DNA of 64,000 nt from Prevotella sp. (lineage in GTDB: Bacteria > Bacteroidota > Bacteroidia > Bacteroidales > Bacteroidaceae). The notes under the pieces were generated by a model. The model saw only the letters and a list, made by a program, of their open reading frames with translations. It was not told the DNA's origin and made no database searches. Shown in pieces: positions 20,705 through 20,865 of the stretch; position 1 is the stretch's first letter, and every line of letters starts with the position of its first letter. The position numbers were made by a program, and so were the translations under genes. The stretch lies in NCBI GenBank assembly GCA_016291085.1, contig JAEEVW010000010.1:40053-104052 (forward strand), read 5' to 3'.

Positions 20705-20865
20705 ATTGGGGCGGGGGCTCGAAGATATTCGGGCGCCCGCCCTAATTCATTGGGGCGCCCGCCCGAATCTAGCGAGAAGGCTTCTCGCTCCCAGTGAAAC
20801 GGCTTCTCGCTCCCAGTGAAACGGCTTCTCGCTCCCAGTGAGACGGCCTCTCGCTCCCAGCGAGT
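20705..20865. repeat. intergenic 22-bp-period palindrome array (7 units)
   Basis: Unit starts 20705, 20727, 20749, 20771, 20793, 20815, 20837; e.g. AGTGAAACGGCTTCTCGCTCCC; sequence changes but register does not. Confidence 0.88.

What the first reader, a model, noticed from the sequence alone, without database searches (positions are those of the whole stretch)
20705..20865. 22-bp-locked palindrome array between ackA and purL
Seven successive units start exactly 22 bp apart (20705, 20727, 20749, 20771, 20793, 20815, 20837), although the first three (GGGCGCCCGCCC type) and the last four (CTTCTCGCTCCCAGTGA type) differ in sequence. Each unit carries a self-complementary core (e.g. AGCGAGAAG-G-CTTCTCGCT, CTCGCT-CCC-AGCGAG). 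Constant register with changing sequence is unusual for slippage repeats. It suggests a process or binding protein that measures about two helical turns.
Basis: partly seen in the sequence, partly recalled or inferred. Interest (0 to 1): 0.8.

Follow-up and report, generated by a model that had tools for sequence, protein, structure and literature searches.

The report
HU-like gene's private 22-bp arrays
The 22-base repeat array between ackA and purL is the gene-less leftover of a widespread Prevotella module in which an HU-like DNA-binding protein gene carries its own fast-changing DNA repeats locked at exactly 22 base pairs, which suggests that this little-studied protein family is the ruler that reads them.

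Summary
Lag-22 identity at 20697-20880 is 0.73; no lag in 500 shuffles exceeded 0.44. It is not isolated: all four clear arrays in the window have period 22. The focal array is a solo copy of an element conserved in rumen-type Prevotella. In intact copies, including one in this genome (contig 36), an HU-HIG (PF18291) DNA-binding protein with a predicted C-terminal winged helix lies directly upstream, and the array starts at its stop codon. In 75 such loci the best lag after the gene is 22 in 73 (pooled z=42.7, upstream z=0.1), although the sequences differ widely. Other HU-HIG genes carry private 20-23-bp arrays within 200 bp: 54/110, against 75/904 control ORFs and 0/22 canonical HU loci, which were scored by a different rule. 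Unit sequences are unrelated between subfamilies. TTCCCAnnnTGGGAA arrays keep 22-bp spacing while their linkers vary. Most likely HU-HIG proteins bind these sites, one every two helical turns. Binding itself is not shown. I found no published description in the open library, but the key HU-HIG paper was not readable there.

The parts
20652..20675 (+). Remnant of the 3' end of an HU-HIG gene (in frame RKEVSKE*, compare ...YFPKxEASKE* in intact copies)
   Evidence: intact copies (L058, L059, L060, L075, L077 and others) encode VRESRRWLYFPKxEASKE* or close variants immediately before the array; only the last codons remain here.
20679..20692 (+). Leader hairpin TCGGTTTTTACCGA at the start of the element (TCGGTTTCGACCGA in most copies)
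   Evidence: leader sequence shared by element copies in 18 of 150 congeneric genomes.
20690..20777 (+). A block: four 22-bp rows (CGACCGCTCGCATATATTGGGG / CGGGGGCTCGAAGATATTCGGG / CGCCCGCCCTAATTCATTGGGG / CGCCCGCCCGAATCTAGCGAGA)
   Evidence: same four rows, same register, directly after the stop codon of HU-HIG genes in other genomes and at L058 (G000 contig 36).
20778..20865 (+). B block: four nearly identical 22-bp rows (CGGCTTCTCGCTCCCAGTGAAA type)
   Evidence: (TRF 3.7 copies, 96% matches), 20, 29: corresponds to the TGCCGTCTCTCTCCCTGTTACA rows of intact copies, homogenised here; the same family occurs at about 20 places in the genome.
20866..20893 (+). Tail CCGTACACCTTTCCTTTTCCCTGCGTAT
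   Evidence: matches tail CCGTACCTTTTCCCCTGTTCCTGCGTAT of the gene-bearing copy L003/L058.
43990..44122 (+). Second 22-bp array, several unit types in one register, including GCCGTTTCTCTCCCAGCGAGAG (same family as the focal B block)
   Evidence: C49:84089-84181; lag 22 = 0.73.
3093..3171 (+). 22-bp array CAACCGTGCGCGTTAGCCCAAA; its family also lies 3' of an HU-HIG gene with a C-terminal extension in another genome
   Evidence: L394 has CGACCGTTTGCGTATAGGCGAA / CGGTCGTTTGCGTATAGGCAAG starting about 48 bp after the stop of an HU-HIG gene.
53025..53105 (+). 22-bp array of TTCCCAAnGTGGGAA palindromes lying in frame inside a 759-aa ORF (52339-54618)
   Evidence: the ortholog in G056 has four 22-bp units at the same codons with a different palindrome; this family was not linked to any HU-HIG gene.

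Best explanation
The array is a gene-less ('solo') copy of a dispersed module: an HU-HIG gene (HU fold plus a predicted winged helix) followed, from its stop codon, by a two-block array of about eight 22-bp rows. I infer that HU-HIG proteins are sequence-selective architectural DNA binders and that each array is the binding platform of its own family member, with one protein unit per 22 bp (about two helical turns) so that neighbours sit on nearly the same face. Register is held by the protein's geometry, while unit sequence drifts together with the protein and is homogenised within an array in 22-bp steps. Depending on the subfamily, the array sits 5' of the gene or 3' of it (here). Shown: homology of the window array to gene-bearing copies; the gene-array association; the 22-bp lock with changing sequence; private units; dispersal. 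Inferred: that the protein binds the array, that the spacing reflects its stacking, and that the output is autoregulation or local DNA architecture.
For: Intact copies with gene and array, including one in this genome at C36; PF18291 E=4.6e-16; predicted HU fold plus helix-helix-helix-strand-strand C-terminus, with PDB matches IHF/HU, 4FMR (BVU_2165) and winged-helix repressors. After the HU-HIG stop codon, pooled lag-22 z=42.7, 44 z=25.6, 66 z=13.1; best lag 22 in 73 of 75 loci; no lag-22 signal upstream of these genes; 3' regions of 668 control ORFs give 40 with best lag 22. Other HU-HIG genes: arrays of period 20-23 within 200 bp in 54 of 110 against 75 of 904 control ORFs (upstream 44/110 against 37/904); pooled upstream lags 22, 44 and 66 stand out (z=16, 9.6, 4.8) over 94 deduplicated sequences; canonical HU loci 0 of 22, counted within 450 bp of the locus centre. 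Units are no more alike than shuffled ones once proteins are under 45% identical, and alike (0.79) above 80%. Array units have excess dyad symmetry: 23% at p<0.05 against 0-2% for arrays of other periods. TTCCCAnnnTGGGAA cores are spaced exactly 22 bp in 46 of 48 cases while the 7-nt linkers vary. Near-identical genes sit in different surroundings: of 58 pairs at 90% identity or more, 6 share the upstream flank. No array follows ackA in 29 congeners.
Against: No binding or expression data. About half of HU-HIG genes show no detectable array within 200 bp; all five closely related G040 paralogs lack one. Most arrays in the genome are not next to an HU-HIG gene, and the TTCCCA family was never seen next to one. 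Arrays of 21 and 23 bp also occur beside HU-HIG genes, so the ruler is not absolute across subfamilies. Common descent of the arrays could preserve 22 bp without protein contact. The fold model is only moderate (pLDDT 74, pTM 0.39) and no Foldseek match reached E 0.001. The control-ORF stretches from G000 were partly chosen because they contain arrays, which makes that contrast conservative; the canonical-HU control used a different distance rule.
Confidence: 0.6

Rival explanations
1. MITE-like minisatellite: the array is inert DNA that travels with a mobile element; 22 bp is inherited from one ancestral array and kept by unequal crossing-over or gene conversion, without any protein reading it.
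For: Internal deletions of the gene with both ends kept (L064, L065, L068, L076, L085); different surroundings of near-identical copies; solo arrays outnumber genes; BrickBuilt of P. gingivalis is a minisatellite inside a MITE (PMC4596501).
Against: Linker sequence of TTCCCA arrays drifts but its length does not (46 of 48 at 22 bp); palindrome arms change together in nearly all units between the window gene and its G056 ortholog; the association holds for HU-HIG genes of unrelated array sequence, 5' or 3', in other families of the order. Neutral arrays should accumulate indels.
Confidence: 0.22
2. RNA-level function: the array is a transcribed 3' or 5' untranslated region whose hairpins act as a terminator, stabiliser or protein-binding RNA.
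For: The array starts at the stop codon in the intact gene; at L020 it lies between a TAnnTTTG promoter-like motif and an HU-HIG-like start; B units contain imperfect hairpins.
Against: RNAalifold on 27 homologous 3' regions finds 11 pairs and a covariation term of +0.12, i.e. no support; no Rfam match in the window; the array register is direct-repeat, and some arrays lie inside genes.
Confidence: 0.1
3. Ordinary slippage minisatellite with no relation to the neighbouring gene family; the 22-bp period is coincidence.
For: Copy number varies and B units in the window are recently homogenised.
Against: Period 22 dominates across unrelated unit sequences; strong and specific enrichment next to HU-HIG genes.
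Confidence: 0.03

Closest known systems
HU-HIG family (PF18291), HU domain fused to wHTH, Ig or glycine-rich motif; solved structural relative 4FMR (BVU_2165)
   Same: The gene of intact copies is a member by Pfam score, with HU fold and a predicted C-terminal winged helix.
   Different: From memory, published work on the family is computational and proposes roles against mobile elements; I know of no described adjacent 22-bp arrays, but that paper was not in the library.
Plasmid iterons, e.g. the seven 22-bp repeats of the R6K gamma origin (from memory)
   Same: Works like: tandem sites of about two helical turns beside the gene of their presumed binder.
   Different: Chromosomal and dispersed; no Rep gene seen; no match of this protein in 72,556 plasmid records; binder is HU-like, and unit sequence differs for each gene.
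BrickBuilt minisatellite MITE of Porphyromonas gingivalis (PMC4596501)
   Same: Bacteroidales; leader, tandem short repeats, tail; dispersed intergenic copies.
   Different: 23-nt unit with IS5-like terminal inverted repeats and no HU-HIG gene mentioned in the parts read; here 22 nt and gene-bearing full copies. Terminal inverted repeats were not examined systematically.
Rickettsia palindromic elements (from memory)
   Same: Palindromic repeats found in frame inside protein-coding genes, as at 53025-53105 and L365, L367, L377, L383.
   Different: Here the repeats are 22-bp tandem arrays, often intergenic, and other array families belong to HU-HIG genes.

Membership tests
HU-HIG (PF18291) | HU domain above the Pfam cut-off | tested here: met
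   59.4 bits against cut-off 26.2 for the protein of L058; 17 places in G000.
HU-HIG (PF18291) | Extra domain fused to HU (wHTH, Ig or Gly-rich) | tested here: met
   AlphaFold2 model: C-terminal H144-157, H162-169, H173-182, E191-196, E199-204; Foldseek matches to winged-helix repressors. Moderate confidence.
BrickBuilt-type minisatellite MITE | Leader and tail flanking tandem short repeats in dispersed copies | tested here: met
   Shared leader and tail around variable 22-bp arrays.
BrickBuilt-type minisatellite MITE | IS-like terminal inverted repeats and target-site duplication | not tested
   Element ends were not resolved; only a GCAAAGTTAC...GTAACTTTGC inverted pair around the promoter was noticed.
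Plasmid iteron | Replicon with Rep initiator binding the repeats | tested here: not met
   Arrays are chromosomal and dispersed; no plasmid match for the protein. Rep genes were not searched for as such.
REP/BIME with RAYT transposase | Y1-type transposase gene as partner | not tested
Known RNA family | Match to an Rfam model or conserved covarying structure | tested here: not met
   No Rfam hit; covariation term +0.12.
Known anti-phage defence protein | PADLOC model match | tested here: not met
   0 families for three members.

The most novel reading that the evidence does not exclude
Bacteroidales carry a large family of mobile HU-HIG modules, each a sequence-selective HU-like protein plus its own array of sites locked at 22 bp. 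Protein specificity and site sequence diversify together, so each genome holds many mutually private protein-array pairs plus dispersed solo arrays, including arrays inside genes, that organise DNA or control genes in trans. This would be a class of register-locked nucleoprotein system not described before.
Probability: 0.35. Interest if true: 0.9.

Novelty: new variant of a known kind. Interest (0 to 1): 0.75.

Why it matters
HU-HIG proteins are expanded in these bacteria (17 places in this genome, up to 30 in a congener) with no function that I know to be established. An adjacent, private, register-locked array gives each member a testable target site straight from sequence, and would turn an HU-type protein, normally thought of as non-specific, into a family of sequence-selective binders with a measurable 22-bp repeat. 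It also explains many otherwise unexplained minisatellites in rumen Prevotella genomes and cautions against reading them as slippage.

Tried and rejected
CRISPR-like array: repeats are contiguous, without unique spacers. Known RNA: no Rfam match, no covariation support. One diverged tandem duplication: rejected by unrelated unit sequences at the same period genome-wide and by congeneric loci. Insertion of the coding array at 53025 after species divergence: the G056 ortholog has an array at the same codons with a different palindrome, so it is most simply inherited. A genome-wide regulon of the G056-type unit: only one copy found in 100 genomes. Linking the TTCCCA arrays to an HU-HIG gene: none within about 1.5 kb in the fetched loci. 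Empty-site comparison at ackA-purL: downstream neighbours of ackA differ in the congeners seen, so only absence of the array could be shown, not a clean empty site. Literature: no paper on HU-HIG arrays found.

Full report
Observation. Lag-22 identity is 0.73 over 20697-20880; the best lag in 500 shuffles never exceeded 0.44. The window has three further arrays of exactly period 22 with mostly unrelated units: 3093-3171, 43990-44122 and 53025-53105.

Genome context. The window is contig 49 of a 3.63-Mb draft genome; its closest named relatives for this element are rumen Prevotella records. A search with the focal array found 21 places in its own genome, and repeat scans of those loci and sampled stretches show arrays of period 22 with many unrelated units. 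In stretches taken mostly without regard to arrays, period-22 arrays are densest in two congeners with many HU-HIG genes (G042 100, G003 60 per Mb), sparse in G009 and G019 (10 per Mb, 2-3 genes) and absent from 160 kb of three other Bacteroidales; G018 (30 genes, 19 per Mb, small sample) does not fit the trend and G000 (25 per Mb) fits it weakly.

What the array belongs to. Leader plus A rows recur in 18 of 150 congeneric genomes in the same register. In intact copies the DNA just before the leader encodes the end of a protein of about 211 aa, ending VRESRRWLYFPKxEASKE* or a close variant; the array begins at its stop codon. The protein is HU-HIG, PF18291, E=4.6e-16. One intact copy is in this genome (G000 contig 36, L058). 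The window copy keeps only RKEVSKE* (20652-20675), so it is a solo derivative. Internal deletion derivatives occur elsewhere. No array follows ackA in 29 congeners.

The register is locked, the sequence is not. In the 80 named loci the region after the HU-HIG stop codon has pooled lag-22 identity 0.469 (z=42.7; 44: z=25.6; 66: z=13.1) and the best lag is 22 in 73 of 75 usable loci; the region upstream of the same genes shows nothing at 22 (z=0.1). Control 3' regions: 40 of 668 have best lag 22.

Other members. For 110 HU-HIG genes, 54 have a 20-23-bp array (or its double) within 200 bp, against 75 of 904 control ORFs; upstream only, 44 against 37. Pooled lags stand out at 22, 44 and 66 upstream. 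Canonical HU loci: 0 of 22, but these were counted by array midpoint within 450 bp of the locus centre, not by distance from gene ends, so that figure is not the same measure as the other two. Outside the order, 3 of 10 loci matching PF18291 have a 22-bp array by that centre rule. Units resemble each other only between close paralogs and show excess dyad symmetry.

Spacing versus sequence. TTCCCAnnnTGGGAA arrays (17 of 100 genomes) have cores exactly 22 bp apart in 46 of 48 cases, the rest 44, while linkers vary. Several lie in frame inside genes. In the window's 759-aa ORF and its G056 ortholog, four 22-bp units occupy the same codons but the palindromes differ, with both arms changed in nearly all units. 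This family has not been linked to an HU-HIG gene, so extending the HU-HIG explanation to it is inference.

Mechanism. The model is that an HU-HIG protein binds its array with one unit per 22 bp. The fold prediction (pLDDT 74) gives an HU fold and a winged helix; best PDB matches are IHF/HU, 4FMR and winged-helix repressors, none below E 0.001. Binding is not shown. RNA function is disfavoured. A neutral travelling minisatellite remains the main rival: near-identical genes rarely share flanks, which shows dispersal but says nothing about binding.

Limits. Draft genomes; simple ORF calls as controls; some G000 control stretches were chosen because they carry arrays, which works against the contrast; shuffles are first-order Markov samples. 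The library lacks the main HU-HIG paper, so novelty is provisional.

Noticed in passing
window 52339-54618, array 53025-53105; L365, L367, L370, L377, L383, L384: TTCCCAnnnTGGGAA 22-bp arrays sit in frame inside coding sequences (window 759-aa protein; by eye CobB-like, methyltransferase-like and ABC-F-like ORFs elsewhere), at matching positions in three methyltransferase-like ORFs of different species.
   Followed up: partly
G000 contigs C11, C23, C50, C58: HU-HIG genes lie at the very ends of four contigs, as expected if near-identical copies broke the assembly.
   Followed up: no
L213, L214, L217, L218 downstream of HU-HIG genes (G003): A shared segment of roughly 130-150 bp with ends CCACGGGAGC...GCTCCTGTGG (inverted), likely a separate small repeat element.
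   Followed up: no
phage record MT838260.1 3423-4064 (-): A 5.5-kb phage record from human faeces encodes a distant HU-HIG relative (22.8% identity, E=3e-7).
   Followed up: no
L032 12074-12126, L036 10307-10347, L024 2932-2978: 21-bp tandem arrays of AAGTGATAAGTGATAAACGAT type, apparently built on a 7-bp motif, a different repeat class from the 22-bp arrays.
   Followed up: no
L020 (G000 contig 60): A 22-bp array of the focal family lies between a TACCTTTG promoter-like motif and the start of a truncated HU-HIG-like gene.
   Followed up: partly
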